DNA of 64,000 bases from Burkholderia sp. lig30 (GTDB lineage Bacteria; Pseudomonadota; Gammaproteobacteria; Burkholderiales; Burkholderiaceae). Below the pieces are notes generated by a model, which did not search any database, was not told where the DNA came from, and saw nothing but the letters and a program-made list of their open reading frames with translations. How positions within the stretch are numbered: the stretch's first letter is position 1; each line of letters begins with the position of its first letter. Shown piece by piece: positions 3,591 through 64,000 of this stretch. Made by a program: the position numbers and the translations under genes. The stretch covers positions 1 through 64,000 of the forward strand of contig NZ_JGVW01000064.1 in NCBI RefSeq assembly GCF_000687455.2, read 5' to 3'.

Positions 3591-3686
3591 TGGCGGAAGG
3601 CAGCCGGAGTCGAACCGACCTGGGAGCGGCTGACGCCCCCAACTGAGTTTGAAGCCCAGCCGCACCACCGGATGCGAATGCCTTCC
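3591..3686 (-). tRNA. selC: tRNA-Sec (anticodon UCA)
   Basis: A 96-nt selenocysteine tRNA. The 8-bp acceptor stem GGAAGGCA/TGCCTTCC is followed by discriminator G and an encoded CCA end (3591-3593). The anticodon loop reads CTTCAAA, with TCA as the anticodon, inside the GCTGGGCTTCAAACTCAGT arm. A long variable arm (GGGGGCGTCAGCCGCTCCC) and a T-loop GGTTCGACTCC follow. The extended acceptor stem, long variable arm and UCA anticodon together are diagnostic. It lies 19 bp beyond the selB stop on the same strand, so it may be processed from the sel transcript or have its own promoter. Confidence 0.98.
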
Positions 3687-48172: not shown

Positions 48173-49720
48173 ATGTCCCGACATTTGAAGTTCGCAAGCC
48201 GCAGCATACGGGCGGCGGCGTCCATGGTTCTGACGCCCATTGGGGTCATCGGTTGCGCGGGGTTGCTGTGGCTGTGCACGTGCGTGTTCTTTGCCGCGAT
48301 GCTGCTCGCGGCTCGGGAAGACGCCTACAACAACGAAGTGCAAAACGCTCGCCAGCTGGAGACCGCGCTCGAGCGCGACATTCTGCGAAGCATCGAGCTT
48401 TACGATCTGTCACTGAGCGCCGCGGCCCAAGGCGCCACCAATCCGCGCGTCATGTCATTGCCCGCCGATCTGCGAGACCCGGTGCTCTTCGACCGCGCTG
48501 CATCGGCCAAATATCTCGGCCCGATTTCCGTGCTGGATGCCAACGGGAAACTCCTGGTGAATTCCGGCAGCGCCCCGGCGGATAGAGTGGACTGGTCCGA
48601 ATTGCCTTTTTTTCGGATCCACAAGGAAAAAATCGATTCCGGCTTGTATATCAGTTTGCCGTATCCGTCCGAATTTCCGCCGCACGAGAAAGTCATCGCA
48701 CTGAGCCGCCGTATTAATGGACCGGACGGGTCGTTGACTGGCGTTGTCGTCGGGCGATTGAGCATCGATTATTTCAATCACTTGTTTGACGGGCTCTCGG
48801 TAGGGCGCGACGAGACCATCTTCGTCATGGCAACCGATGGCACGCTGATCGCGCGACTTCCGTATAACCGTGACGCCGTCGGAAAAAATCTTCAGGGTTC
48901 CGCTGTTTTTTCCGGCCTGTCGCACAGCCCGTCCGACGCCGTCTCCGGAATCTCGCGCATCGATGGCGTGCATCGGCTGTATGTCTACAGGCGCCTCCCG
49001 GGATTGCCGTTCGTCGTTGCCGCGGGCCCGGCCTGGAACGTCGTTTTCGCCGGCTGGCGTACCCGCGCCGAATGGCTGACCGGGTTCATGGTGCTGTTCT
49101 CCGTGGTCATCTGGGCTGGCACACTGTTGCTGGCTCGCGAGCTTCGCCGACGCCAGCGCGCCGAATGCGACCTGCAGAGACTGGCCCGTCGGGATGCGCT
49201 GACCGGGCTCGAGAACCGCGGCGCGTTCGACGAGGTATTGAGTCAGGAATGGGCGAACACGCAGCGCACGGGAAGGCCTCTGTCACTGCTCTTCATCGAC
49301 ATCGACCACTTCAAGTCCTATAACGATCATTACGGCCACCAGTCCGGCGATCGGGCATTGAAGGCGGTCGCATGTTGCATCTCCGCATGCGTTGCCCGCC
49401 CGTCCGATCATGTGGCACGTTACGGCGGCGAGGAGTTCGTCGTGATTCTCCCGGAGACCGCCGTCGACGGCGCCGCAATGGTCGCGGAGAAGATTCGGCA
49501 AGGCATCCGTGACATGCATGTCGCGCATGTGAAAAGCCGCTTCGGCTACGTCACGGTCAGCATCGGCGTTTCATCGTCTGCCCATCCTGCCGTCCACGGC
49601 GGGGACGCGCTGATCCGGGTGGCGGATCTGGCGGTGTATGAAGCCAAATCCCTGGGAAGAAACCGCGTCTGCATCGCGGCCGAAGCGATCGCTTCGGCGC
49701 CCGAGGCGGCATTGAAGTGA
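48173..49720 (+). CDS. Membrane-bound diguanylate cyclase with periplasmic sensor
   Basis: 515 aa. A first transmembrane helix (residues 18-45) and a second at about 300-318 flank a periplasmic Cache-like sensor (PISVLDANGKLLVNSGS...GVVVGRLSIDYFNHLF...MATDGTLIARLPYN). The C-terminal GGDEF domain has DALTGLENRGAFDE, an intact GGEEF active site (residues 418-422) and an RPSD inhibitory I-site five residues before it, so it should be active and feedback-controlled. It is divergent from the PgaC-like synthase and probably supplies c-di-GMP to it. Confidence 0.92.
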   Translation: MSRHLKFASRSIRAAASMVLTPIGVIGCAGLLWLCTCVFFAAMLLAAREDAYNNEVQNARQLETALERDILRSIELYDLSLSAAAQGATNPRVMSLPADLRDPVLFDRAASAKYLGPISVLDANGKLLVNSGSAPADRVDWSELPFFRIHKEKIDSGLYISLPYPSEFPPHEKVIALSRRINGPDGSLTGVVVGRLSIDYFNHLFDGLSVGRDETIFVMATDGTLIARLPYNRDAVGKNLQGSAVFSGLSHSPSDAVSGISRIDGVHRLYVYRRLPGLPFVVAAGPAWNVVFAGWRTRAEWLTGFMVLFSVVIWAGTLLLARELRRRQRAECDLQRLARRDALTGLENRGAFDEVLSQEWANTQRTGRPLSLLFIDIDHFKSYNDHYGHQSGDRALKAVACCISACVARPSDHVARYGGEEFVVILPETAVDGAAMVAEKIRQGIRDMHVAHVKSRFGYVTVSIGVSSSAHPAVHGGDALIRVADLAVYEAKSLGRNRVCIAAEAIASAPEAALK

Positions 49721-49965
49721 CCGCGCCTCGCTGAAGCATCCCGCTGTAACGTTGGCAGCGCGTCGCCTCGCCCCGATGACGTCCGGCGTCCGGGCGTCGT
49801 GGCGGTCGGACAGCCAACGGCCCCGCCGCGAGCCATGAAAGACGCGGCACCTTCCGCTCGGGCGCTCACCGCCCCGCGCTTGCCGTCACGCGACCGAATC
49901 CGAACGACAACGAACGGCGCCCGCCCATGCCCGGTACCGAGCAGCGCGTGCCGTCCGGACAAAGA

Positions 49966-49986
49966 CGCCCGCTTGCAAAGCGGGCG
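49966..49986 (-). terminator. Terminator-like hairpin after the small gene at 50.0 kb
   Basis: Perfect 9-bp stem (CGCCCGCTT with AAGCGGGCG) and a 3-nt loop, followed on the minus strand by TCTTTG; just 15 bp after the stop of the 77-aa gene. It may also act on the plus strand for the cyclase. Confidence 0.6.
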
Positions 49987-50001
49987 AGGTTCGTGACGGG
50001 C

Positions 50002-50235
50002 TCAGGCCGTCACGTTGATGACGGATCCCACTTTCTGGCCGCTGGCGTTGACGGTCGCCGCTGCCGGTTGCTGCGCGGTGGCCTTGACCGCCTTTGCGCC
50101 GGCATCGTCGCCGTCGCCGTCAACGTCCGGACCCACTTCACGCGCTTCCGGGGACGAGCCGCGCTGCGCCACCTTGGCTTGCGCGGAATGGACTTGCTGC
50201 GTCACCGGGTTACTGCCGACAGAACCGACGTTCAT
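50002..50235 (-). CDS. Conserved-looking small hypothetical protein (77 aa)
   Basis: 77 aa from the ATG at 50235 with AAGGAG seven bases upstream. It opens MNVGSVGSNPVTQQV, has an acidic DVDGDGDDA stretch around residue 37, and ends GQKVGSVINVTA. No signal peptide, membrane segment or recognised domain. A good ribosome site and adjacent terminator support a real gene. Function unknown. Confidence 0.65.
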   Translation of the reverse strand: MNVGSVGSNPVTQQVHSAQAKVAQRGSSPEAREVGPDVDGDGDDAGAKAVKATAQQPAAATVNASGQKVGSVINVTA

Positions 50236-50615
50236 GAACTTCTCCTTGAGGTTGCGGGCACGTACACCTGCCCAATCAGGTTTTCGGCAAATAAGCACAC
50301 TCGAATTAGGGTTATTCGTGAAACATTGCGTTGCACCCGCATATGACATGCGATGTCACGCCTGTCATTCAAAGCGCAGCCCGCGAATTCGTTAAATATT
50401 GTTTAGAAGCGTTTGCATTGCCCATTGATGGGTTAAGTTCCCTGCCCTCGCCGCGCACAACGACCCGATCCCCTGACGGGATGATTTGAAAAGGTCTGAA
50501 AAAACAATCAGCGAAAGCAGTCAAGAAAATTCATCGCCCGTGACGCAGGCAATGCATTGCGCAGGCCAATCGGGCCACAGGTCGACGAAACCATGCGAAA
50601 GGGCACGTTGTCGTG

Positions 50616-52676
50616 ATGACAGTACTAGGGTGCATCGTTCATAGGCACAATATCTGGCTGGTGATTCTCGCGGCGCTGCTGTGCGGCGCGGGCTCGTGGG
50701 TCACGGCACGGCTGTTCCTGCGCACCGCCAACACGACCGGCGCGCAGAAGATCGGCTGGCACGTCCTCGCGGCCATCTCGGCCGGCGTGGCGATCTGGTG
50801 CACGCACTTCGTCGCGATACTCGGTTTCAAGGCGGATGTGCCGATCGGCTTCAACGCCGCCCTGACGATCGTCTCGCTGCTCATCGCGGTCGGCGGCAGC
50901 ACCATCGGCTTCATCCTGGCGGGCACCCGCCTCACGCGTTTCACGCCGGCGCTGGGCGGCGCGATCGTCGGCGTGTCGATTGCCCTGATGCACTACACCG
51001 GCATGATCGCGTGGCGGCTGCAGGGCATCGTGTCCTGGGACATCGGCTACCTCTGCGCATCGATCCTGCTGTCCATCGCGCTGTCGGCCGTCGCGCTGCA
51101 CCTTGCGATGCGGCCGGACCCGCAGGCAGTCAACCACATGGCCGGCACGCTCGCCGCCGCGATCCTCTCGCTTCACTTCACCGGCATGACGGCCTTGAGC
51201 GTCACGCCCGTGAACGTCGGCAGCGCGTTTTCCGACGCCGACGCGCTGCACACGCTCGCGCTCGCGATTGCCGGCATGTCGCTCGTGATCGTCTGCACGG
51301 GGCTCCTGAGCTACCTGATCGACAGCAACGTGCGGGCCGAATCGCTCGAACACCTGCGCCGGATGGCGCTGAGCGACATGCTGACGGGCCTGCCGAACCG
51401 GAGCAGCTTCAACGAACGCCTGGACCACGAAATCGCGCTCGCCCGTCAGCGGGGCCGGCAGCTTGCGCTGATCGGGATCGACCTGAACCGATTCAAGGAA
51501 ATCAACGACCTGCGCGGCCACCATAGCGGCGATGAGGTGCTCCGCGTGCTCGCGCGGCGCATGACGAACCTGCTCGAGACCAACGAATTCGTCGCGCGCG
51601 TCGGCGGCGACGAATTCGCGGCGATCTGCCGCATGGAGGACGGCGCGGACCTGCCGGATTTCCTGTCCCGCCTCGAAACCGCGCTTCACAAGCCGGTGCG
51701 GCTGGACGAATACGATGTCGCGCCGGGCGCGAGTTTCGGCGTGTCGATCTACCCCGACGACGCACCGGACAAGGCGGCGCTCATCAACAACGCGGACCTG
51801 GCCATGTACCGCGCCAAGGGCAGCATGACACGCGCCGTCTGCTTCTACGAGCCGTCGATGGACGAACGGGTGCGGGCTCGGCGCAGCCTGGCCGCCGACC
51901 TGCGCGATGCGCTCGCCGGCAACCAGTTGAGCCTCCACTACCAGGTGCAGACATCGCTGTCGACCGGCGAGATTCGCGGCTTCGAGGCCCTGCTGCGCTG
52001 GCGGCACCCGACGCTCGGGCTCATTCCGCCATCCGGGTTCATCCCGCTCGCCGAGGAAAACGGCCTGATCCTGACGATCGGCGAATGGGTGCTGCGCGAC
52101 GCGTGCCGGACGGCCGCGTCCTGGCAGCCGCCGTACACGGTCGCGGTCAACGTGTCGGCCGTGCAGTTCATGCACGTCGACCTGACTCAGCTCGTCGCCG
52201 ACGTGCTCGACGAGACCGGCCTGCCTGCCCGGCGCCTGCAACTGGAGCTGACGGAGTCGACGATCTTCGCGGACCGCGAGCGGGCGCTGCATACGCTGCA
52301 GCAGATCAAGGCGCTGGGCGTGAGCGTCGCGCTGGACGATTTCGGCACCGGTTATTCGTCGCTCGACATCCTGCGCGCGTTCCCGTTCGACAAGATCAAG
52401 CTCGACCAGTCGTTCGTGACCCGGGCGGCGACCAGCCCGCGGGATCGCGCGATCGTCCGCGCGGTGCTCGCGCTCGGCAAGAGCCTGGGGATTCCGATCC
52501 TGGCCGAAGGGATCGAGACGCCGGATCAGCTCGCGCTGCTCGCGGAAGAAGGATGCGATGAAGCCCAGGGCTTCCTGCTCGGCCGGCCAATGCCGCTCGC
52601 CGAGATCGTCCGCGACGGGCAGATCGCCATGATCGCGACCGGCGATGAAGCTGCGGCCGATTCCGCGACGCGCTAG
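50616..52676 (+). CDS. MHYT-GGDEF-EAL c-di-GMP enzyme
   Basis: 686 aa from the ATG at 50616 (a GTG one codon earlier is possible). Residues 1-240 form the MHYT membrane sensor of seven helices: three copies of the motif appear as [15 protein letters not shown] and SLHFTGM, with His and Met thought to hold copper. The GGDEF domain has an intact GGDEF at 330-334. The EAL domain starts at residue 457 (FEALLRW), with NVSAVQF, ELTES and [10 protein letters not shown] active-site residues. All catalytic signatures are intact, so both activities are possible. It overlaps the converging SRAP gene by 4 bp. Confidence 0.94.
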
Positions 52677-53708: not shown

Positions 53709-55079
53709 TCATGGCTTGCCGGCCGCGACGCGGGCGAGCGCGTCGATCGCGGCATGGACATGATCGGACGTGTGCGTCGAGCAGATGAAGAAGCGCAGCC
53801 TCGCCAGCTTCTCCTCGACGGCGGGATAGAAGATCGGCTGCACGTTGATCCCGCGCTCGAAGAGCGCGTTCGACCACTCGACGGCCTTGCGCGAGCTTCC
53901 GGTGATCACCGGGATCACCGCATATCCGGCGCTCGTACCCGTGTTCAGGCCGATGCCGGCTGCCTCGTCGAGGAACTGGCGGCCGCGCTCGCGCAGCTGC
54001 GCGACGCGCTGCGGCTCGGCCAGCATGCCCTCGATCGACGCGAGCGACGCGGCGGCGAGCGCCGGCGCGAGCCCGACGCTGTACAGGAAGCCGGGCGCGA
54101 GATGGCGCAGGATGTCGATCAGCGCCTGCTCGCCCGCGATGAAGCCGCCGCACCCGCCGAGCGTCTTGCTCAGCGTGCCCATCCAGATGTCGACGTCGCG
54201 CCCGTCGATCCCGAAATGCTCGCGCACGCCGCGGCCGGTCTCGCCGAGCACGCCCAGCGAATGCGCCTCGTCCACCATCAGGAACGCCGCGTGCCGGCGC
54301 TTGATCTCGATGAAACGGTCGAGCTGCGGGTAGTCGCCGTCCATGCTGTACAGCCCTTCGATCGCGATCAGCACGCGCCGGTAGTCGCCCCGCACGCGCG
54401 CGAGCAGTTCGTCGAGCGCCTGCCAGTCGTTGTGCGGAAAGGTCAGCCGCTTCGCACCGCTCAACTGCGCGCCCTGCACGACGCTGTTGTGCGCGAGCGC
54501 GTCGTGTACGACGAGGTCCGACGGGCCGAACAACGCGCCAATGACCGTCACGTTCGTCGCATGGCCGCTCACGAACGCGACACAGTCGTCGACGTCGTAG
54601 AGCGCCGCCAGCGCGCGCTCCAGCGCGGCATGAACCGGCCGCTCGCCGGCCACCATGCGGCTCGCCGACGCGGACGTGCCGAACTGGTCGATCGCGGCCT
54701 TCGCGCGCGCCGACACGTCGGCCGATCCCGAGAAGCCGAGATAGTTGTAGTTCGCGAAATTCACGTAGGTCTTGTCGCCGATCTGCGTCGTCGCGCCGGC
54801 AACGCCGTCATGCACGCGAAAGAACGGCGACGCGATGCGCAGCTGCTCGCGCATTTGCCTCAGGATCGCCACCTGCTGATAACCCGGCATCGTGTCGAAA
54901 CGGCACATCGCCGCCAGATCGGCCGCGCCGGGCGCGGGCGCGCGCCCGCCCGGCGCCGGCGAACCGGGCGCTTCGTACACGGCCGGCACCACGCCGCCGA
55001 CGTCGTTGCTCACCCGGTCGAGTTGACGCTTGAGCGCCTTCGCGGCGAGCTGCTGCCTGAGTTGCTGACCCAATCCCAT
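53709..55079 (-). CDS. Alpha-oxoamine synthase (KBL/BioF/SPT family) paired with the PKS
   Basis: PLP enzyme that joins an amino acid to an acyl thioester with loss of CO2, giving an alpha-aminoketone. 456 aa from the ATG at 55079 with GGAGGA upstream. After a helical N-terminal extension of about 70 aa comes NYNYLGFSGS, then SGHATN, FLMVDEAHSLGVLG (PLP-binding Asp-Glu-Ala-His) and PLP lysine Lys305 in GTLSKTLGG. BioF is about 385 aa, so the extension is distinctive and may dock to the carrier protein. It lies 130 bp after the polyketide synthase, which lacks a thioesterase, so this enzyme is the likely chain-release step. Confidence 0.88.
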   Translation of the reverse strand: MGLGQQLRQQLAAKALKRQLDRVSNDVGGVVPAVYEAPGSPAPGGRAPAPGAADLAAMCRFDTMPGYQQVAILRQMREQLRIASPFFRVHDGVAGATTQIGDKTYVNFANYNYLGFSGSADVSARAKAAIDQFGTSASASRMVAGERPVHAALERALAALYDVDDCVAFVSGHATNVTVIGALFGPSDLVVHDALAHNSVVQGAQLSGAKRLTFPHNDWQALDELLARVRGDYRRVLIAIEGLYSMDGDYPQLDRFIEIKRRHAAFLMVDEAHSLGVLGETGRGVREHFGIDGRDVDIWMGTLSKTLGGCGGFIAGEQALIDILRHLAPGFLYSVGLAPALAAASLASIEGMLAEPQRVAQLRERGRQFLDEAAGIGLNTGTSAGYAVIPVITGSSRKAVEWSNALFERGINVQPIFYPAVEEKLARLRFFICSTHTSDHVHAAIDALARVAAGKP

Positions 55080-55209
55080 ATCGTCCTCCGATCTCCTGCC
55101 CGTTAGCCATGCCGGCGCGCCGGCGCGAGCCGGGCCGGCGGCGCCGCGCGCCGGCCGGCCTCGCGACACCGCCGCCGCATCCGTTGTCGCACGTCACCCG
55201 CCGCGCGCG

Positions 55210-58200
55210 TCAACGGCCGCCCTCCTCGTTGAGCGCCGCCTGCCGCGCGCCGTCCGCGGTCTCCCTGATATCGGCGTCCGTCAGCTCGACCGCGTGCGCG
55301 GCCGCCAGCGCGGCCACCTGCTCCTCCAGTTCGGCGTCCGGACGCTCGGGCCGGGCATCCGCCTGGATCAGCTCGACGATCCTGCGCGCGATCGAATTCA
55401 CGGTCGCGCCCTGCGCGAGCATCATCACGGACAGCTTGACCTGGAAGCATTCCTCGACCGCCATGCGCAGCTCCATGCCCATCAGCGAGTCCATCCCGAG
55501 CTCGAGCACGGAGCGGTCCGGATCGATCTTCGCCGCCGTCATGTTCAGGATCCGCGCGACTTCGGCGCGAAGCGCCTCGGCGACGACCGCCTGGGCGTCG
55601 TCCGGCGCCAGCCCCAGGATGTCTTCGCGCAGGCTCCCGCCCTCGGCCCGCTGCGCATCGCGCTGATCGCGGCCGCGCATCTCGACATACCGCTCCGAAC
55701 GCGCGGACGGGATCACCTTCGCGATCGCGTCCCAGTCGAGCCACGCGACGGCTTCGCCGGCCGCGCCCGCGAGCAGCACGCGCTCCAGCGCCGACATCGC
55801 CTCGCGCGACGTGATCGAGCGGCCGCCGATGCGCGCCTCGAGCGCATCGCGCGTCTGGCGGTTGCGTGCGAGGAAGCCGACGTCGTCGATCGGCCCCCAC
55901 GCCATGAAGCAGGCCGGCAGCCCCGATGCGCGGCGCAGCCGCACGAGCGATTCGAGGAACGCGTTCGCGGCGACGTAGTTCGACTGCCCCGGATTGCCGA
56001 GGAACGTCGTGGCAGACGAGTACACGACGAAGAAATCCAGCGCGCGGCCCGCAGTGGCCCGATGCAGGTTCCACGCGCCGGCCACCTTCGGCGCCATCAC
56101 GCCGCGCATGCGCGCATCGTCGAGGTTCGCGATCAGGCCGTCGGCGATCGACAGCGCCGAATGCACGACGCCCTTGAGCGGCGTGCTCGCGCCGTCGATC
56201 TTCTCGACGAGCCGCGCGACTGCCGCGGCGTCGGTGACGTCGCACGACGACAGCGTGAGCGTCACGCCCATCGCCTCGGTCCAGCGCCGCGCCTGCGCGG
56301 CCAGTTCCGGCGCGAGCGTCGCCGACCGGCTCGCGAGCACGACGTGCCGCGCGCCCTTCTCGACCAGCCACGCGGCGGTCGCAAAGCCGAGGCCGCTGGT
56401 GCCGCCGACCACCAGGTAGGTCGCGCGCGGCTCGAGCTGCAGCGTGCCGCCCGGCGCCGCCTGCGGCGCGGGAACACCGCCGCGGAAACTCAGCAGGATC
56501 TTGCCGATCTGCCGGGCCTGCTGCATGTAGCGGAACGCGTCCTCCGCACGCTCGGCGGGAAAGACCCGATACGGCAGCGCGTGCAGCGTGCCGTCGGCGA
56601 TCAGGTCCAGCACCTCGTTGAAGAGCTGCGAGGTCAGCTCGGGCGACTCGCGCATCAACTGGTCGGCATCGATGCCGAAGTAACTGATGTTGTTGCGGAA
56701 CGGACGCAGGCCGATGCGCGTGTTCTCGTAGAAGTCCCGCTTGCCCAGCTCGAGGAAGCGCCCGAACGGACGCAGAACGTCGATGCTGCGCACCATCGCC
56801 TCGCCCGCGAGCGAGTTGAGCACGACGTCGACGCCGCGCCCTTCCGTGCTCGCCAGGATCTCGTCCGCGAACGCAAGGCTGCGCGAGTCGAACACGTGGT
56901 CCGCCCCCAGCAGCCGCACGAATTCGCGCTTCTCGCGGCTGCCCGCGGTCGCGAACACTTCCGCGCCGAGATGCTTCGCGAGCTGGACGGCCGCGATGCC
57001 GACGCCGCCCGCCGCTCCGTGCACCAGCACGCGCTCGCCGGCGCGCAGCTGCGCGAGCCGGTGAAGCGCGTAATAGACGGTGAAGAACGTGGTCGGAATC
57101 GTCGCGCCCTCGTCGAAGCTCAGCCGCTCCGGCTTCAGCGCGATCGCGCTGACGCGTGTCCTGACGCGCGACGCGAAGCAGGCCGGCGCGAAGCCCAGCA
57201 CCGCGTCGCCCACCTTGAAGCCGGCGACGTCGCGCCCCGCGCGCACGATCCGGCCGGACACTTCCATGCCGACGGTCGGCCCGGCAAAGCCGTTCTCGAC
57301 TGCCTCGTCCGACAGCAGCCCCATCGCATACATCACGTCGCGGAAATTGAGGCCGGCGGCAACCGGCTCGATCTCCACCTCATCCGCGCCGAGGTCGCAC
57401 TCCGGCAGCGGGAACCAGCGCAGGTTCCGCAGCGACCCCGGCGCCTCGAAGCCCAGATACGCCGGCCGCGCCGAAGCGGACGCAGCGCGCCACTCGCCGC
57501 GCAGGTCCCGCAGCGCGGCGGGCGCCATGCGCGTGACGTAGCGGCCGCCCGACGCGAGCAGCGTCTCGTCCCCGCTCTGCTGCGACAGCAGCTCGCGCAC
57601 GAGCCGCGCGGGGGGCGCGGCGCAGCCCGGCTCGATGTCGACCAGCCGGCAATGCAGCTCGGAATGCTCGTTCATCAGGACCCGCGCGAATCCCCACAGC
57701 GTCGCCTGCTCAGGCCGCGCCGCCACGCCGTCCGGCCCGGCGGCCAATGGCGCGCCGCCGCTCGTCACGATCCACAGGCAGAGATCCCCCTGCCGCGGCA
57801 GTTGCACGAGCGCGCGGGCCAGCTGGGCGAGCGCGATCGCCGTGCTTTCCTGCGCGTCCATCATCGCCGCGCCGTCCGCGCCGGGCGGCACGCCGTCTGC
57901 CGACGCCGCGACGAACACGACATGGCGCGCACGATTGCCGGCCGCCTGCTCGAGCGCCGCCCATTCGTCCGCGAGCGCCGCGTGTTCACCACACGTCACG
58001 GCCTGGTTCTTGGCCTGCAATGCGCCGGCGAGGTCGTCCGCCAATGCGCGCTGTGCGGCCCCGCCAGCGACCACGTGCCACCACGCCGGTTCGGCATCGA
58101 CACGTGCCGCAGGTGCATCGCCCTCGTGCCGCCGTGCCGCGATGACGACCGGCGTCCCCTCGATCTCGAGGTCAGTCTCGGAATGAAGCACAACATGGTC

Positions 58201-61200
58201 AAACCCCTCTGCGTTCAGCAGCGTCTCGATCGCGCCCGCCTCGAGCAATCCGCAGCGTTCGTGCGCCCACGCGTCGGCGTCGAGGCCGAACACGATGTCC
58301 GAAAAGCGGCTCGGCTGGCTTTCGACAGCGAGCAGGATGCCGCCGGGCGCCAGCCATGCGCGGGCAGCCTGCAACAGCCGTGCCGCTTCGCCGCCGGCGC
58401 GCAGCATGTTCCTGACGACCACCACGTCGTAGCGCGCGGGACGGCCCGCCTCGGTCGCGAGCGCGAATCCGTCGGTGGTATCCAGCTCGACGGTGCGTAT
58501 CAGCGGATACACGGCGGCGTCGACCGACGCGAGCTGCTCCGCGCTGCCGGCGACCGCGTAATCGCACCGCGCCTGCACCTGCGGCGCGAGCGGCTGAAAG
58601 AGCCCCGTGCCCGGCGTGACGACTTCGAGCACCGTCAGCGTCCGGTCGTCGCGCCACGCGTCGACCGCGGCTTCGACGCACGCACGCGCCACGGCGTTCG
58701 CGTGCGCCCCGCTCGGCGACGCATCGTGCAGGTGGTCGACCAGATCGCCATGCCCGTGCGGCAGCACCGCGTCCGCGGCCGTCTCGCCCGCCAGCACGGC
58801 GGGCAGCGCCGCGCCGCAGTGCGCGAGCAACGTCAGTTCCGCGACGTGCGCGGGCGACAGCGCGAGCAGCCCGCGCCACAGATCCTCGATCGACGGCAGC
58901 GTTTCCTCACCCCGCTCGAGCCGACCGTCGACGACCGCCAGCACGCCGTCCTCGACGAGCATTGCGACGAGCCGCTCGAACAGCGCGCGGTTGTGCGTGG
59001 CCGGCGGCGGCGCGGCGCCGATCGCGCCGATCGCCTCGACCGCGCGCAGCGCGAAGCTCGCGGCCAGCACGTCGAACAGCGGCATGACCTGCGTCAGGTG
59101 GGTCGCGCGCTGTTGCGCGTCTTCCTGCGCCGACACCGCGGCGCAGGACGCCTCGACGAGCCGCGCGGGATCGGGCAGGCCCGCCGCGCTGAGATCTTCG
59201 TCATACGGCCGGGCCAGCGCGGTGAACGTATAGCGGCCGGGCTCCGCCTTGTGACGGCCGGTGAAATCGACGCGCCGGAAGCGGCACGCGTCGATCGTCG
59301 CAACGACCTTCGCGTCGCTGTCCATGTAAGTGAACGACGCGACGAGCGAATGCGGGCTGCGCCGCACGATCCGCACCAGCACGCGCCGCACCGGATCGCC
59401 GCCGAAGAACGCGATGCGGCCCATCTGCACCGGCACGTAGGCCGCAGACGCCGCCCCGGCCCACGCCTCTTCCGCGAGCAGCGCAAACAGCGGATGAAAA
59501 CCGCTGTCCATCGCGGCCGGGTGCAGCGCGTAATCCGGCAACGTGCCCGCCAGCGCCGCAGGCATCTCCAGCTCGGCGAGCACCGCGCCCGGCAGCAGGC
59601 GCAGCGACGTCACCCAACGGAAGGTGTCCCCGTAACCGAGCCCGATCGCCGCCGCGGCATCGTAGAGCGATGCCGCATCAAGCGGCGGCTGCGTGTCGAA
59701 ACCGGCCAGCGTTTCAGCCGGCACCAGCGGCACGGCCGGCGTAGCGCCGATCCGGAACAGGCGTCCCGTGACGTTGACCGTCCACGGTTCGTCCGACAGG
59801 CGGCCGCGCGTCTCGATGACGAAGCCGGAGGTCTGCGTGTCGATCGTCAGGCGGAACAGCTTCGACTGCTGCGGCTGAAACACGACCGGCGCGCGGATCT
59901 CGAGGTTCTCGATCCCGCAGGCAGGCGTGCCGAAATGGATCTGCGCGGCGGCGATCGCCATTTCCGCGTAGCCCGCGCCAGGGAACGTGATGCCTCCGTC
60001 GACGACGTGGTCGGCGAGCATCGGCATGCTGACCGGATCGATCTGGTTTTCCCAGGCCGCCGCGTGGTCCTTCAGCCGATAGCCGAGCAACGGGTGCGCG
60101 CGGCGGCGATGAATCAGGCGGTATCCCTCCGAGGTCTGTTCCACTTCGTGCCGCTCGCGCTGCCACGGATAATTCGGCAACGCCGCGTGCGCGCCGTCCG
60201 GCTCGGCCGGCACGAGCGCCGCCAGATCGACGCGCGCGCCGTTGGCGAGCGCCGCGTACAGCGCGCGGGCGAGTTCCGCCGCGCCGTCCTGATTGCGGAT
60301 CAGCGTCGGCAGCGATCGCCCGCCGACCTTCGCGTCGTCGATCGTCTGCGTGAGATAGGTGCGCAGGATCGGATGCGGGCCGATCTCCAGAAAGATCCGC
60401 ACGCCGGCGTCGAGCAACGCGCGCGTCGCATCGGCAAAGCGCACCGGCTCGCGAATGTTGCGCCACCAGTACGCCGCGTCCAGCGCCTGCCCGGACAGCA
60501 GGCTGCCCGTCACCGACGATGCGAACAGGCACTGCGACTCGTGCGGGCGAAGATCGTCGAGACCGTCGAAGACGAGCGCACGGATCGGGTCCATCCGGTC
60601 GCTGTGGAACGCATAGTCGAGATCGAGGATCTGGAAGAACTGCCCGCGCTCGAGCATCACCGCCTGCACCGCGTCGAGCGCCTGCGGCGCGCCGGCGAGC
60701 GTGACGGACTGCGGGCTGTTGACCCCGGCGATGACGAGTTCGCCCCCGAGCCCGAGCGTGTCGATCAATTGACGGGCCGCCGCCTCGTCGAGCCCCACCG
60801 CCGCCATCTTGCCGGTGCCGCGGGTTTGCGCCTGGGCGCCGCTGCGGACCTTGATCACGTGGATCGCCTGGTCGAGCGTCAATGCGCCGGCCGCCCATGC
60901 CGCGGCGATCTCGCCGACGCTGTGACCGAAGCAGGCGTCGAATTGCAGGCCGCGCTGCAGCAGCACGCTCAGCACGCCGAATTGAACGGCGAAAAGAAGC
61001 GGCTGCGCGTACTCGGTCGCCGCCAGATGCTCGGCCGTCACGCCGCCGCGCAGCTGTTCGACGAGCGACGGGCTGCCGTCTGCCCGCCACAGCACGTCGA
61101 GCTCGGTCAGCGCCGCGCGGAAATGCACGTCCTCTTCGAACAGGCGCTGCCCCATCCCCGCCCATTGCGCGCCGTTGCCCGAGAACACGAGCGCGAGCTT

Positions 61201-62796
61201 TCCGCCGCCGTCGGGCACCTCGCCGGTGACGACCGATGGCGCGCCTTCGCCCCGCGACAGCGCGTCGAGCGCGTCGATGCCCTCGTCGACGCTGGCTGGG
61301 CCGACGACCGCGCGATGGGCCAGCCACTCACGCCGGTGCGCGGCGCCGGCCGCGAGCGCGGCCCACGACTCGCCCGCCTCGACACGCGCCTTGTACGCGC
61401 CGGCAAGCGCGTGGAGCGCCTTCGGCGAGCGTGCGCCGAGCATGAGCGGCGGCAAGCCGGCATGCTCCGGCGCCAACGGCGCGCGTGGCGCGGCATCCGG
61501 CCCGGCGTCGGCTTCGCGCAGCAGCACGTGCGCGTTGGTCCCGCCGAACCCGAACGAATTGACGCCGACCGTCAGCGGATGCCCGCTGCCGGAAAGCGGC
61601 GTATACCGGTCGACGACCCGCAGCCCGCCGCCGTCGAAGTCGATGTTCGGATTGGGCGTGCGGAAATGGATCGTCGCCGGCACTGCCCGGTGCTTCAGGC
61701 ACAGCACGGCCTTCAGCAGGCCGGCCATGCCGGAGGCCGGCTCGAGGTGCCCGAGGTTGCTTTTCACCGAGCCGATCATCAGCGGGTGGCCAGGATCGCG
61801 CCCGCGGCCGAGCACCTCGCTCAGCGCGCGGGCTTCGGTCGGATCGCCGACCGCCGTGCCGGTGCCGTGCGCCTCGACATAGCTGATGTCGCGCGGGTCC
61901 ACGCCGCCGCGCGCGCAGACCTGCTCCAGCAGCGCCGCCTGCGTCGCCGACGCCGGCACGTTGATCCCGCCTTGCGAATGGCCGTCCGAGTTCACGCCCG
62001 ACGAGACGATCACCGCATGGATCGTGTCGCCGTCGGCGATCGCCTTGTCGAGACGCTTCAGCAGCACGAGCGCGCCGCCCTCGGATCGCACGTAGCCGTC
62101 GCCCGACGCGTCGAACGCGCGGCAGCGGCCCGTCGGCGACAGCATCGACGCCTTCGAGAAGCCGATGAACGGATACGGATGGAGCAGCAGGTTCACGCCG
62201 CCCGCGAGCGCGGCGTCGGCTTCGCCCGCGCCGATCGACATGCATGCCTGGTGGACGGCCACCAGCGACGACGAGCAGGCCGTGTCGATCGACATGCTCG
62301 GCCCGCGCAGGTCGAACAGGTAGGAGATCCGGTTCGACACGATGCTGATCGTGTTGCCGGTCGCCGAATACGCATCGATGATGCTCAGGTCGTCGGTGTT
62401 GCGGTCGCCGTAGTCCTTGCTCGATACGCCGATGAACACCGCGCAGTTGCTGCCGGTCATGTCGGCGGGCCGGCGCCCCGCATTCTCGAACGTTTCCCAC
62501 GCCAGTTCGAGCAGCAGGCGCTGCTGCGGGTCCATCTGCGCCGCTTCACGCGGCGAGATGCCGAAGAACGCGGCGTCGAATTCCATGACGTCGCCGATCA
62601 CGCCGGCGGCGAACGTGTAGCTCTTGCCGGGCTCGCGCTTCGCGGGATGCCGGTAAAACTCGGTACCGAAGCGCTCCGGCGGAACCTCTGTGACCGCATC
62701 CCTTTCCTCGACCAGCAACTCCCAGAGTTCATCCGGATGACGCACGCCGCCCGGCAGGCGACATGCCATTCCCACAATTGCAATTGGCGTGTTCAT
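55210..62796 (-). CDS. Single-module highly reducing type I polyketide synthase
   Basis: 2528 aa. Domains in order: ketosynthase (1-425; Cys174 in DTACSSS, EAHGTGT, KSNLGH), acyltransferase (about 530-830; Ser626 in GHSVGE, YAFHS near 745 suggesting malonyl-CoA), dehydratase (about 895-1170; His930 in DHVVDGGITFP, Asp1097), a methyltransferase-like region (about 1200-1590) with a damaged SAM motif, enoylreductase (about 1690-2030; HGAAGGVGIAAVQ), ketoreductase (about 2130-2330; GGTSGLG, Tyr2274 in SNYVAAN), and acyl carrier (Ser2437 in GMDSLMG). No thioesterase. All reducing domains look active, so iterative use would build a saturated chain. Next to an alpha-oxoamine synthase and lipid transport genes. 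Confidence 0.93.
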   Translation of the reverse strand: MNTPIAIVGMACRLPGGVRHPDELWELLVEERDAVTEVPPERFGTEFYRHPAKREPGKSYTFAAGVIGDVMEFDAAFFGISPREAAQMDPQQRLLLELAWETFENAGRRPADMTGSNCAVFIGVSSKDYGDRNTDDLSIIDAYSATGNTISIVSNRISYLFDLRGPSMSIDTACSSSLVAVHQACMSIGAGEADAALAGGVNLLLHPYPFIGFSKASMLSPTGRCRAFDASGDGYVRSEGGALVLLKRLDKAIADGDTIHAVIVSSGVNSDGHSQGGINVPASATQAALLEQVCARGGVDPRDISYVEAHGTGTAVGDPTEARALSEVLGRGRDPGHPLMIGSVKSNLGHLEPASGMAGLLKAVLCLKHRAVPATIHFRTPNPNIDFDGGGLRVVDRYTPLSGSGHPLTVGVNSFGFGGTNAHVLLREADAGPDAAPRAPLAPEHAGLPPLMLGARSPKALHALAGAYKARVEAGESWAALAAGAAHRREWLAHRAVVGPASVDEGIDALDALSRGEGAPSVVTGEVPDGGGKLALVFSGNGAQWAGMGQRLFEEDVHFRAALTELDVLWRADGSPSLVEQLRGGVTAEHLAATEYAQPLLFAVQFGVLSVLLQRGLQFDACFGHSVGEIAAAWAAGALTLDQAIHVIKVRSGAQAQTRGTGKMAAVGLDEAAARQLIDTLGLGGELVIAGVNSPQSVTLAGAPQALDAVQAVMLERGQFFQILDLDYAFHSDRMDPIRALVFDGLDDLRPHESQCLFASSVTGSLLSGQALDAAYWWRNIREPVRFADATRALLDAGVRIFLEIGPHPILRTYLTQTIDDAKVGGRSLPTLIRNQDGAAELARALYAALANGARVDLAALVPAEPDGAHAALPNYPWQRERHEVEQTSEGYRLIHRRRAHPLLGYRLKDHAAAWENQIDPVSMPMLADHVVDGGITFPGAGYAEMAIAAAQIHFGTPACGIENLEIRAPVVFQPQQSKLFRLTIDTQTSGFVIETRGRLSDEPWTVNVTGRLFRIGATPAVPLVPAETLAGFDTQPPLDAASLYDAAAAIGLGYGDTFRWVTSLRLLPGAVLAELEMPAALAGTLPDYALHPAAMDSGFHPLFALLAEEAWAGAASAAYVPVQMGRIAFFGGDPVRRVLVRIVRRSPHSLVASFTYMDSDAKVVATIDACRFRRVDFTGRHKAEPGRYTFTALARPYDEDLSAAGLPDPARLVEASCAAVSAQEDAQQRATHLTQVMPLFDVLAASFALRAVEAIGAIGAAPPPATHNRALFERLVAMLVEDGVLAVVDGRLERGEETLPSIEDLWRGLLALSPAHVAELTLLAHCGAALPAVLAGETAADAVLPHGHGDLVDHLHDASPSGAHANAVARACVEAAVDAWRDDRTLTVLEVVTPGTGLFQPLAPQVQARCDYAVAGSAEQLASVDAAVYPLIRTVELDTTDGFALATEAGRPARYDVVVVRNMLRAGGEAARLLQAARAWLAPGGILLAVESQPSRFSDIVFGLDADAWAHERCGLLEAGAIETLLNAEGFDHVVLHSETDLEIEGTPVVIAARRHEGDAPAARVDAEPAWWHVVAGGAAQRALADDLAGALQAKNQAVTCGEHAALADEWAALEQAAGNRARHVVFVAASADGVPPGADGAAMMDAQESTAIALAQLARALVQLPRQGDLCLWIVTSGGAPLAAGPDGVAARPEQATLWGFARVLMNEHSELHCRLVDIEPGCAAPPARLVRELLSQQSGDETLLASGGRYVTRMAPAALRDLRGEWRAASASARPAYLGFEAPGSLRNLRWFPLPECDLGADEVEIEPVAAGLNFRDVMYAMGLLSDEAVENGFAGPTVGMEVSGRIVRAGRDVAGFKVGDAVLGFAPACFASRVRTRVSAIALKPERLSFDEGATIPTTFFTVYYALHRLAQLRAGERVLVHGAAGGVGIAAVQLAKHLGAEVFATAGSREKREFVRLLGADHVFDSRSLAFADEILASTEGRGVDVVLNSLAGEAMVRSIDVLRPFGRFLELGKRDFYENTRIGLRPFRNNISYFGIDADQLMRESPELTSQLFNEVLDLIADGTLHALPYRVFPAERAEDAFRYMQQARQIGKILLSFRGGVPAPQAAPGGTLQLEPRATYLVVGGTSGLGFATAAWLVEKGARHVVLASRSATLAPELAAQARRWTEAMGVTLTLSSCDVTDAAAVARLVEKIDGASTPLKGVVHSALSIADGLIANLDDARMRGVMAPKVAGAWNLHRATAGRALDFFVVYSSATTFLGNPGQSNYVAANAFLESLVRLRRASGLPACFMAWGPIDDVGFLARNRQTRDALEARIGGRSITSREAMSALERVLLAGAAGEAVAWLDWDAIAKVIPSARSERYVEMRGRDQRDAQRAEGGSLREDILGLAPDDAQAVVAEALRAEVARILNMTAAKIDPDRSVLELGMDSLMGMELRMAVEECFQVKLSVMMLAQGATVNSIARRIVELIQADARPERPDAELEEQVAALAAAHAVELTDADIRETADGARQAALNEEGGR

Positions 62797-62925
62797 CTCT
62801 TCTCCGCATCAGCGTTGTCTCACTCCGTCACCGCACCGGCAGCCGCGACACCCCGATATCGGCCGCTTCGGTCCGATGCAGCAACTCCGCTCTCGCTCCC
62901 GCTATCGTTGGCGTTATCGCTATCG

Positions 62926-63669
62926 CTATCGCATGAACAGATTCAGGTCGAACACGTAGTCCGGCAACGGCTCGACGCGCGGATTGCGCAGGCTCAGATA
63001 GGTGATCGAGCCGTTCATCAGCTCGCCGCGCAGCGTGATCTTCGAGATGAACGGCCTGCTCGCGCCCGACACCCGCACGACGTTGTCGTAGTTCATCGTC
63101 GACGACTTGAACTCCTTGCCCGACACGGTGTAATACTTCGCCTTGATGCCCACGAGGCGCTTCTTCGACACCCAGTATTTGATCCGGTCGTAGGTGGTCT
63201 TGTCGTTCTTCGCCTTCAAGTCGAACACATAGCAATCCTCACCGCTTACGTCGTCGTCGGGAAGCTGCGCGGCCTCGTAGTTGTCTGCGTAATTCGTCGC
63301 CGCGATGTCGCCGTAGGCCGCATCGCCGAGCAGCTTCTGCCGCTGCGAGATCGGCACCGGCTTGCTGAGCCCGGGCTTGTAGAACCACATCGCGGTGTTG
63401 AGCATCAGCAGTTTCTCGCCCTTGTATTTCGGCGGCGCGAGACTCATGCCGGACACGTCGAAGCCGCGCGCCTTGATGTCGTACACCATCGTATCCATCA
63501 CCTGCTCGTTCTCGGTCGATTCGATCGTCACCTGCCACGCGACGCCCGCGACGTTGCCGCGCGCCTCGTCGGCCGCTTTCAGGATGTCCCGCGTGCTCAG
63601 CGAGGCCGGCGCGCTGGTGCTCACGAACAGCCCCGTCAGGATGGGCACGATGTAGCGAAGTCGCTTCAT
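62926..63669 (-). CDS. LolA-like outer-membrane lipoprotein-sorting family protein
   Basis: 247 aa with a signal peptide (MKRLRYIVPILTGLFVSTSAPA-S). The mature protein reads STRDILKAADEARGN, then KARGFDVSGMSLAPPKYKGEKLLML..MWFYKPGLSKPVPIS, the hallmark of the lipoprotein-sorting (LolA-like) family associated with lipid or MMPL/ABC export loci; a barrel-like half fold binds lipid. It lies between an FtsX-type permease (22 bp upstream) and the polyketide synthase (129 bp downstream), and its stop falls in a run of GCGATA/AGCGAT hexamers. Likely carries the product across the periplasm. Confidence 0.85.
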   Translation of the reverse strand: MKRLRYIVPILTGLFVSTSAPASLSTRDILKAADEARGNVAGVAWQVTIESTENEQVMDTMVYDIKARGFDVSGMSLAPPKYKGEKLLMLNTAMWFYKPGLSKPVPISQRQKLLGDAAYGDIAATNYADNYEAAQLPDDDVSGEDCYVFDLKAKNDKTTYDRIKYWVSKKRLVGIKAKYYTVSGKEFKSSTMNYDNVVRVSGASRPFISKITLRGELMNGSITYLSLRNPRVEPLPDYVFDLNLFMR

Positions 63670-63690
63670 GTCTGTCTCCCCGAAGTGCGG

Positions 63691-64000
63691 TCACGCATAC
63701 GCCAGCGCGCCGACGATCACCATCCGCGCCGCCTTGCGCGCCGGCAGCAGCGCCGACAGCAGCGACAGGCACAGCAGCAGCAGCACGCTGTACAGCCAGT
63801 AGTCCGGCACGAGATAGATCTGCAGCGGGATCTGCCGGCTCACCTGCGGCGGCACCCAGGTCGGCTGGAAGTAGCCGACCGCGCCGAGCACGGCCAGGTT
63901 CAGGACGACCCCGAGCACGGCGCCGAACGCGCCCAGCATCAGGCTTTCGAGCGCGAACAGCCCGACGATCCCCTGGCGCTTCACGCCGAGCGCGCGCAGC
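63691..64000 (-). CDS. FtsX/MacB-family ABC transporter permease, C-terminal part (cut by window edge)
   Basis: The visible 103 codons run in frame to the window edge (an internal GTG could be mistaken for a start). It reads LRALGVKRQGIVGLFALESLMLGAFGAVLGVVLNL, the typical FtsX-type juxtamembrane segment and third transmembrane helix, followed by a periplasmic loop and the last helix with LLPARKAARM. Such permeases pair with LolA-like carriers in lipoprotein or lipid export. Its ATPase partner should lie beyond the right edge. Confidence 0.85.
   Translation of the reverse strand, partial: LRALGVKRQGIVGLFALESLMLGAFGAVLGVVLNLAVLGAVGYFQPTWVPPQVSRQIPLQIYLVPDYWLYSVLLLLCLSLLSALLPARKAARMVIVGALAYA

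What the first reader, a model, noticed from the sequence alone, without database searches (positions are those of the whole stretch)
53709..64000. Polyketide synthase paired with alpha-oxoamine synthase and a lipid-transport module: candidate sphingoid-like aminolipid pathway
The sequence shows a complete single-module KS-AT-DH-(MT)-ER-KR-ACP synthase without a thioesterase, followed by a PLP alpha-oxoamine synthase, and preceded by a LolA-like carrier and an FtsX-type permease. By established chemistry of alpha-oxoamine synthases (serine palmitoyltransferase, CqsA, fungal Fum8p with the Fum1p PKS), the chain on the carrier would be released by condensation with an amino acid, giving a saturated long-chain aminoketone, a sphingoid-base analogue. 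The envelope genes suggest the product is a membrane lipid or exported signal rather than a diffusible antibiotic. This gene combination is not one I can name as a described Burkholderia pathway.
Basis: partly seen in the sequence, partly recalled or inferred. Interest (0 to 1): 0.85.

Follow-up and report, generated by a model that had tools for sequence, protein, structure and literature searches.

The report
Relocated sphingolipid synthase with lipid exporter
This bacterium carries a recently described two-enzyme machine that probably builds sphingolipid-like membrane lipids, but here the usual capsule-linked finishing genes are missing beside it and it sits next to a phenolic-lipid synthase and a lipid-type exporter, which looks like a new arrangement of known parts.

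Summary
A mono-modular PKS (KS-AT-DH-degenerate MT-ER-KR-ACP, no thioesterase; 55210-62796, minus) precedes an alpha-oxoamine synthase (AOS; 53709-55079, minus). Upstream lie a LolA-like protein, an FtsX permease and, beyond 64 kb, the predicted ATPase. The proposed chemistry is sound but no longer new. Peters et al. 2025 (PMC12134224) showed that the homologous SgaA/SgaB of Pseudomonas fluorescens makes C24-C28 sphinganines from serine, and reported homologous clusters mostly in Burkholderia. By gene order the pair also matches WcbR/WcbT (Burkholderia capsule locus) and RkpA/RkpG (rhizobial K-antigen locus). The setting is unusual. In 40 of the 46 other Burkholderia genomes with this AOS, the pair lies in a capsule-type locus. 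Here that locus's capsule protein and phosphoglycerol-transferase-like gene gave no hit in the whole genome, and its reductase and LpxC-like gene only 33% relatives elsewhere. Instead the pair follows, on one strand, an ars-type phenolic-lipid locus and ATPase-FtsX-LolA. Three other Burkholderiaceae pair a distant PKS-AOS (45-47% AOS identity) with the same kind of exporter cassette, which supports a functional link. Best reading: a capsule-decoupled sphingoid or aminoketone lipid, possibly exported with phenolic lipids. New variant of a known kind.

The parts
53709..55079 (-). Alpha-oxoamine synthase, SgaB/WcbT/RkpG type (456 aa; probable ATG start at 55079, longer GTG frame from 55169); probably condenses the PKS-bound acyl chain with serine
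   Evidence: PF00155 E 1.9e-46; 202 bits to bacterial SPT 8guh/3a2b; Lys305, Asp270, His273, His197, Arg427 and Arg429 conserved in at least 128 of 131 aligned sequences; start as in annotated homologue
55210..62796 (-). Mono-modular highly reducing type I PKS, SgaA/WcbR/RkpA type: KS-AT-DH-(degenerate MT)-ER-KR-ACP, no thioesterase (2528 aa)
   Evidence: Pfam domains, active-site motifs, 54-65% identical to the homologues in loci with the LpxC-like gene
62926..63669 (-). LolA-like periplasmic carrier (247 aa; hydrophobic N-terminus that looks like a signal peptide, by eye)
   Evidence: PF17131 E 2e-31
63691..64000 (-). FtsX-type (LolC/E-like) ABC permease, C-terminal part; the gene continues to contig 64941 and its ATPase lies at contig 64938-65675
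   Evidence: PF02687; LolCE model 75.6 bits, under its cut-off of 362; ATPase PF00005 with Walker A and LSGGQ

Best explanation
SgaA-type PKS and SgaB-type AOS make a very-long-chain 3-keto sphingoid base (aminoketone lipid). The single module works iteratively and reduces the chain fully. The chain stays on the ACP because there is no thioesterase and is taken off by decarboxylative condensation with an amino acid, most likely L-serine, on the PLP enzyme. In relatives the base is then reduced and probably given a phosphoglycerol head group, in or near a capsule locus. Here those partner genes are missing, so the product is probably a free or differently modified sphingoid/aminoketone lipid. 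It is probably moved out of the inner membrane by the adjacent ATPase-FtsX-LolA module, perhaps together with phenolic lipids made by the ars-type locus upstream on the same strand. Shown here: gene content, domain and catalytic-residue integrity, family placement, lack of the capsule-type partners, recurrence of the PKS-AOS/exporter pairing. Inferred: substrate, chain length, reduction step, export, co-transcription and joint use with phenolic lipids.
For: PKS and AOS intact. AOS 60-61% identical to homologues in two Pseudomonas clusters whose gene order fits the locus-tag spacing described for MYb115. SgaAB function shown in PMC12134224. Window PKS groups with Cupriavidus/Ralstonia copies, local support 0.987. 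LTA-synthase-like and KpsS-like genes: no hit in the own genome, while tblastn with the same queries matches genus loci at 56-70% and 62-71%. LpxC-like and SDR: only 33% relatives elsewhere. PKS-AOS next to ATPase-FtsX-LolA and an extra 458-aa-type protein recurs in G315, G014 and G072 with a distant AOS (45-47%).
Against: No product is known. None of the 83 loci L007-L089 shows LolA or FtsX near the pair, though several loci are short. In 3 of the 5 sampled genomes of the order that hold both a SgaB-type AOS and a LolA relative the two are unlinked (G167, G189, G277). Ars-type loci of Beijerinckia and Methylosinus also carry a permease and ATPase, so the exporter could belong to the phenolic-lipid side. 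AOS genes without the PKS beside them exist (G077, G189). No dedicated 3-keto reductase was found. The best PDB score of the AOS is to a BioF/Kbl enzyme (217 bits), above SPT (202 bits). Gly308 near the PLP lysine is unique to the window among 131 aligned sequences.
Confidence: 0.68

Rival explanations
1. The exporter belongs only to the ars-type phenolic-lipid locus; the PKS-AOS pair was placed downstream by chance and works alone, making a sphingoid base that stays in the inner membrane.
For: Ars-type loci on Beijerinckia and Methylosinus plasmids are also followed by an ABC permease and ATPase. Gaps on either side of sgaA (about 130 bp) are larger than those inside the ars-exporter block (at most about 80 bp). 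G+C differs between the sga genes (0.69-0.71) and the exporter (0.65). In 44 of 46 other Burkholderia genomes the fetched stretch shows no such exporter.
Against: Those ars-linked permeases gave no hit with the window FtsX at E <= 1e-6 and come with an RND adaptor rather than LolA. The LolA-type cassette recurs beside PKS-AOS in G315, G014 and G072.
Confidence: 0.25
2. The pair still serves a surface polysaccharide: its lipid is the anchor or carrier for a capsule or exopolysaccharide made elsewhere in the genome.
For: Homologues lie in capsule-type loci, and rkp-1 is described as making and modifying a specific lipid carrier for the K-antigen (PMC4881576, passage).
Against: KpsS-like and LTA-synthase-like queries gave no hit in the genome, the LpxC-like and SDR partners have only distant relatives, and the exporter is of lipid type. 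Other capsule families were not searched for.
Confidence: 0.1
3. One hybrid pathway: the ars-type FAS, type III PKS and the PKS-AOS act on the same chain to give a single product carrying both a resorcinol/pyrone part and an amino part.
For: All genes lie on one strand with short gaps, and the DH-PPTase of the ars-type locus was found in 0 of 60 other genus genomes.
Against: Both halves occur apart elsewhere: PKS plus AOS in 44 of 46 other genus genomes (G069 is cut by its contig end, G077 shows no PKS), ars-type loci in alphaproteobacteria with no AOS annotated in the stretch. Each half has its own KS, AT, KR and ACP.
Confidence: 0.06
4. The AOS is a threonine-breakdown (Kbl), biotin (BioF) or haem (ALAS) enzyme unrelated to the PKS.
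For: NCBIfam best scores are to BioF (330.9 bits) and PRK06939 (298.4 bits); the best PDB hits are BioF/Kbl enzymes.
Against: All these curated cut-offs are missed (BioF 426, PRK06939 460, Kbl 493, ALAS 339). The AOS lies with the PKS in 81 of 83 homologous loci (the two others are cut short) and in 44 of 46 genus genomes.
Confidence: 0.03

Closest known systems
SgaA/SgaB (with SgaC) of Pseudomonas fluorescens MYb115, Peters et al. 2025, PMC12134224
   Same: Mono-modular iterative PKS plus adjacent AOS; AOS 60-61% identical to two Pseudomonas homologues held here (the MYb115 protein itself was not available)
   Different: MYb115 has a KDSR-like SDR (SgaC) in the cluster and makes putative phosphoglycerol sphingolipids. 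The window has no SDR beside it, its genome gave no LTA-synthase-like hit, and an exporter and an ars-type locus lie next to it
wcbO-wcbT part of the Burkholderia capsular polysaccharide locus
   Same: PKS and AOS of the same family. Of 46 other genus genomes 39 show LTA-like, PKS, LpxC-like, AOS and GNAT genes together, 37 of them also the SDR and 34 the KpsS-like gene. This fits the six genes wcbO to wcbT; PMC2945791 names only the ends (BTH_I1343-1338 similar to wcbT-wcbO; passages), and giving single letters to single genes is recalled or inferred
   Different: The window has none of these partner genes beside the pair
rkp-1 region of Sinorhizobium meliloti (rkpA-rkpG-rkpH-rkpJ)
   Same: PKS followed by AOS (52% identical), SDR and capsule gene (rkp letters for these genes are recalled); literature: lipid carrier for K-antigen (passage)
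   Different: Distant; the window lacks the SDR and capsule genes
arsABCD of Azotobacter vinelandii (phenolic lipids of cysts)
   Same: The locus upstream has a type I FAS, a type III PKS with 547 bits to PDB 3vs8/3vs9 and a PPTase-containing protein; ars functions from PMC4824345 passages. That 3vs8 is ArsC is recalled
   Different: One type III PKS instead of two, a DH domain fused to the PPTase, and exporter plus PKS-AOS downstream
LolCDE/LolA lipoprotein transport
   Same: ATPase, FtsX-type permease, periplasmic LolA-like carrier
   Different: LolCE model scores 75.6 against a cut-off of 362; a single permease; PF17131 rather than LolA proper
Fungal Fum1p/Fum8p (fumonisin)
   Same: Works alike: reducing PKS released by an AOS (recalled; PMC12134224 draws a parallel to FUM13 for the reductase)
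   Different: Chain and tailoring differ; homology of the clusters was not tested

Membership tests
SgaAB-type PKS-AOS sphingolipid synthase | Mono-modular reducing PKS with ACP and no thioesterase | tested here: met
SgaAB-type PKS-AOS sphingolipid synthase | Adjacent PLP alpha-oxoamine synthase with intact catalytic residues, in the same sequence family | tested here: met
   trees (MYb115 itself not in the trees; Pseudomonas L009 and L081 are)
SgaAB-type PKS-AOS sphingolipid synthase | KDSR-like SDR (SgaC) in the cluster | tested here: not met
   No hit with a cluster SDR in 44-80 kb of the contig; best relative elsewhere 33% identical, a PRK07024-family protein. The paper's defining pair is SgaAB, so this lowers the match to the full pathway, not to the pair
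SgaAB-type PKS-AOS sphingolipid synthase | L-serine specificity and sphinganine product | not testable with these tools
   Needs enzyme assay and lipidomics
wcb/rkp capsule lipid locus | Linked KpsS-like, SDR and LTA-synthase-like genes | tested here: not met
   None in 44-80 kb of the contig; KpsS-like and LTA-like queries gave no hit in the genome
arsABCD phenolic-lipid locus (upstream neighbour) | Type I FAS with ars-type type III PKS and PPTase | tested here: met
arsABCD phenolic-lipid locus (upstream neighbour) | Two type III PKSs (ArsB and ArsC) | tested here: not met
   Only one found in the ORFs scanned; the Methylosinus locus also annotates one, the Beijerinckia locus two
LolCDE-LolA | Curated LolC/E permease model | tested here: not met
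   75.6 bits against 362; works like, not a member
Serine palmitoyltransferase (canonical bacterial) | Curated SPT models NF047599, NF047600, NF047603 | tested here: not met
   283, 271 and 220 bits against cut-offs 500, 640 and 670

The most novel reading that the evidence does not exclude
A dual membrane-lipid operon: one transcript makes ars-type phenolic lipids and PKS-derived sphingoid lipids and moves both to the outer membrane through one ATPase-FtsX-LolA-like exporter. It would have arisen by lifting the capsule-lipid PKS-AOS pair (SgaAB = WcbRT = RkpAG) out of its capsule locus. A corollary: the special lipid of rkp/wcb capsule loci is itself a phosphoglycerol-type sphingoid lipid, with the LTA-synthase-like gene adding the phosphoglycerol.
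Probability: 0.28. Interest if true: 0.8.

Novelty: new variant of a known kind. Interest (0 to 1): 0.5.

Why it matters
PKS-made bacterial sphingolipids were reported only in 2025, and the sections and passages of that paper seen here name no exporter and no head-group enzyme. The window, with G315, G014 and G072, offers a candidate exporter for this lipid class. Seeing that the pair belongs to the wcbRT/rkpAG family gives a testable candidate for the capsule lipid carrier and for the phosphoglycerol transferase. The window strain is a natural experiment: the lipid synthase kept, the capsule-type partners missing.

Tried and rejected
Threonine-breakdown, biotin or haem role for the AOS: all these curated cut-offs missed. 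Vertical origin with the genus copies: not supported, since the window PKS and AOS group with Cupriavidus/Ralstonia copies L010, L011 and L019 (local support 0.987 for PKS, 0.737 for AOS), so gain from outside the genus is more likely; no topology test was run. The PKS tree used 57 of 62 chosen loci plus the window (five short loci dropped), the AOS tree 130 of 132 loci plus the window (two rows with internal stops dropped). An exporter specifically shared with the PKS-AOS loci of G315/G014/G072: not supported, since the window ATPase is closer to cassettes without PKS (54-60% in seven of eleven regions; 48-51% in two; none seen in two short contigs) than to these three (46-51%), so the pairing looks like separate recruitment. 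Of 13 fetched LolA-cassette regions, 2 lie beside a PKS (G315 PKS-AOS; G278 PKS-NRPS) and 11 gave no PKS or AOS hit. A swf-type PKS (sponge symbionts) was considered from paper passages; that cluster carries reductase and sulphotransferase, not AOS. The single-chain hybrid product is kept only as a weak rival. No structure prediction was run, since sequence matches to solved SPTs were enough.
Full report
What is there. The window lies on contig C64 (102,416 bp) of a 5.5-Mb genome, G000. On the minus strand run, in order of transcription: type I FAS (start near contig 76.4 kb, stop 68829; NMO/ER, KS, AT, ACP, KR), type III PKS (68832-67603), DH-PPTase (67603-65756), ABC ATPase (65675-64938), FtsX permease (64941-63691), LolA-like protein (63669-62926), PKS (62796-55210) and AOS (55079-53709). 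Neighbouring genes overlap or are at most about 130 bp apart. An AMP-binding ORF (77353-76406) lies just upstream and looks short. About 1 kb beyond the AOS, on the plus strand, ends an MHYT-GGDEF-EAL gene; the ORFs between gave no Pfam match.

The PKS and AOS. The PKS domains and the motifs looked for are intact except the methyltransferase, which has lost the usual SAM motif and falls below the Pfam cut-off. The AT motifs GHSVGE and YAFH suggest malonyl-CoA (motif meaning recalled). The AOS matches bacterial SPT structures 8guh and 3a2b with 202 bits, below BioF/Kbl structures (210-217 bits). It keeps the PLP lysine, Asp and His of DEAH, the stacking His and the two Arg of the C-terminal motif (roles recalled; conservation). 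It has about 85 residues before the stretch that aligns with SPT, a possible docking part (inference). No NCBIfam equivalog cut-off is reached.

Known relatives. Peters et al. 2025 (PMC12134224; abstract, sections 7, 8 and 9 and found passages seen) showed that sgaA and sgaB of P. fluorescens MYb115 are both needed for C24-C28 sphinganines, that PfSgaB uses L-serine almost exclusively, and proposed that an SDR (SgaC) reduces the keto group; they proposed phosphoglycerol sphingolipids from a 154-Da shift. They found 6,101 homologous clusters, dominantly in Burkholderia. In the main text the terms capsul, rkp, wcb and LTA do not occur. A Pseudomonas plasmid held here carries PKS and AOS and then, on the other strand, PhyH-like, capsule, GNAT, LTA-synthase-like and SDR genes in a row, which fits the locus-tag spacing given for MYb115; this match is an inference. 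The Burkholderia version fits wcbO-wcbT (passages of PMC2945791) and the S. meliloti version fits rkp-1 (passages of PMC4881576). Searches for papers joining these names (listings seen) showed none that joins rkpA/rkpG or wcbR/wcbT with sphingolipid or oxoamine synthase; one paper with serine palmitoyltransferase and rkp concerns the carrier protein RkpF as a comparison (PMC9386255, passages). The library holds open-licence papers only, so this is not proof that nobody has said it.

How the window differs. Of 65 genus genomes, 47 hold a SgaB-type AOS at E <= 1e-75 with the G315 AOS as query. The surroundings of the 46 other than G000 were fetched (20 kb each, one shorter) and searched (recount). 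40 of 46 are of the capsule type: 39 show LTA-synthase-like, PKS, LpxC-like, AOS and GNAT genes (37 also the SDR, 34 also the KpsS-like gene; the fetched stretch ends early in some), and one (G069) is cut by a contig end and shows LpxC-like, AOS and GNAT. Three (G005, G071, G082) have PKS and a 63% AOS without these partners in the stretch. Two (G014, G072) have PKS, AOS, ATPase, FtsX, LolA and a protein of the 458-aa type. One (G077) has an AOS without the PKS. Ars-type genes (type III PKS, DH-PPTase) appear in 0 of 46. The DH-PPTase protein is found in 0 of 60 other genus genomes. In G000 itself the LTA-like and KpsS-like queries give no hit (the tool warns that an empty answer needs a positive control, and the control here is tblastn with the same queries on genus loci). 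The LpxC-like query finds one 33% match in a 315-aa frame, probably the housekeeping gene, and the best SDR is a 33% PRK07024-family protein. G+C is 0.69-0.72 over the sga genes, FAS and DH-PPTase but 0.65 over the exporter and type III PKS, which fits assembly from parts.

The exporter. A LolA-protein search over 300 sampled genomes of the order found relatives in 62; an AOS search over 300 at E <= 1e-70, which scored at most five candidates a genome, found 19. Five hold both (G000, G167, G189, G277, G315); in G000 and G315 they are adjacent, in three not. G315, G014 and G072 have the order PKS-AOS-ATPase-FtsX-LolA-extra protein with AOS 45-47% identical to the window. In the window the cassette lies before the PKS, and its ATPase resembles other cassettes more. 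So the pairing has probably formed more than once, which argues for a functional link but rests on few cases. The extra protein (435-458 aa, no Pfam match; an outer-membrane role is my guess) has a relative in 11 of the 13 fetched LolA-cassette regions. It is not beside the window cassette; a relative lies on the same contig at about 86295-87947, plus strand.

Mechanism and limits. Chain building and AOS release follow from the established SgaAB work and intact residues. Amino acid, chain length, reduction and export are inferred. The missing phosphoglycerol-transferase-like gene predicts that this strain does not make the phosphoglycerol lipid by that route. The ars-type locus is expected to make phenolic lipids, which in Azotobacter become cyst membrane lipids (PMC4824345, passages); joint action with the sphingoid lipid is a guess from gene order.

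Verdict. Observation confirmed; interpretation right in its chemistry, not new as a pathway, new in its arrangement.

Noticed in passing
contig C64 65756 to about 76400 (L006 5756-16400), just beyond the window: Ars-type phenolic-lipid locus (type I FAS, type III PKS with 547 bits to 3vs8, DH-PPTase); the DH-PPTase was found in 0 of 60 other genus genomes.
   Followed up: partly
contig C64 76406-77353 (L164 406-1353): AMP-binding ORF of 315 aa just upstream of the FAS, short for an acyl-AMP ligase; may be truncated or broken.
   Followed up: no
contig C64 86295-87947 (L164 10295-11947): 550-aa ORF without Pfam match, related to the protein that follows ATPase-FtsX-LolA in most of the other Burkholderiales regions fetched.
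   Followed up: partly
window 53709-55079, residue Gly308 of the AOS: Only sequence of 131 aligned with Gly at this place near the PLP lysine; 122 have Ala and 8 Ser.
   Followed up: no
L154 (G005), L169 (G082), L170 (G071): A third architecture in the genus: PKS plus a 63% AOS without LTA-like, SDR, LpxC-like or GNAT partners in the fetched stretch.
   Followed up: no
L166 (G189), L203 (G077): AOS relatives (47% identical) with no PKS hit in the fetched stretch.
   Followed up: no
L144/L163 (G278): The ATPase-FtsX-LolA cassette next to an AMP-ligase-KS-AT-aminotransferase-MT-C-A synthase, perhaps an amino-fatty-acyl lipopeptide.
   Followed up: partly
L161 (G014): PKS and FtsX reading frames of the PKS-AOS-exporter locus look broken in this fragmented assembly.
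   Followed up: no
window 3591-3686 (-): ARAGORN calls a selenocysteine tRNA.
   Followed up: no
window 48173-52676 (+): Two c-di-GMP signalling genes (dCache-GGDEF and MHYT-GGDEF-EAL), the nearer ending about 1 kb from the AOS end.
   Followed up: no
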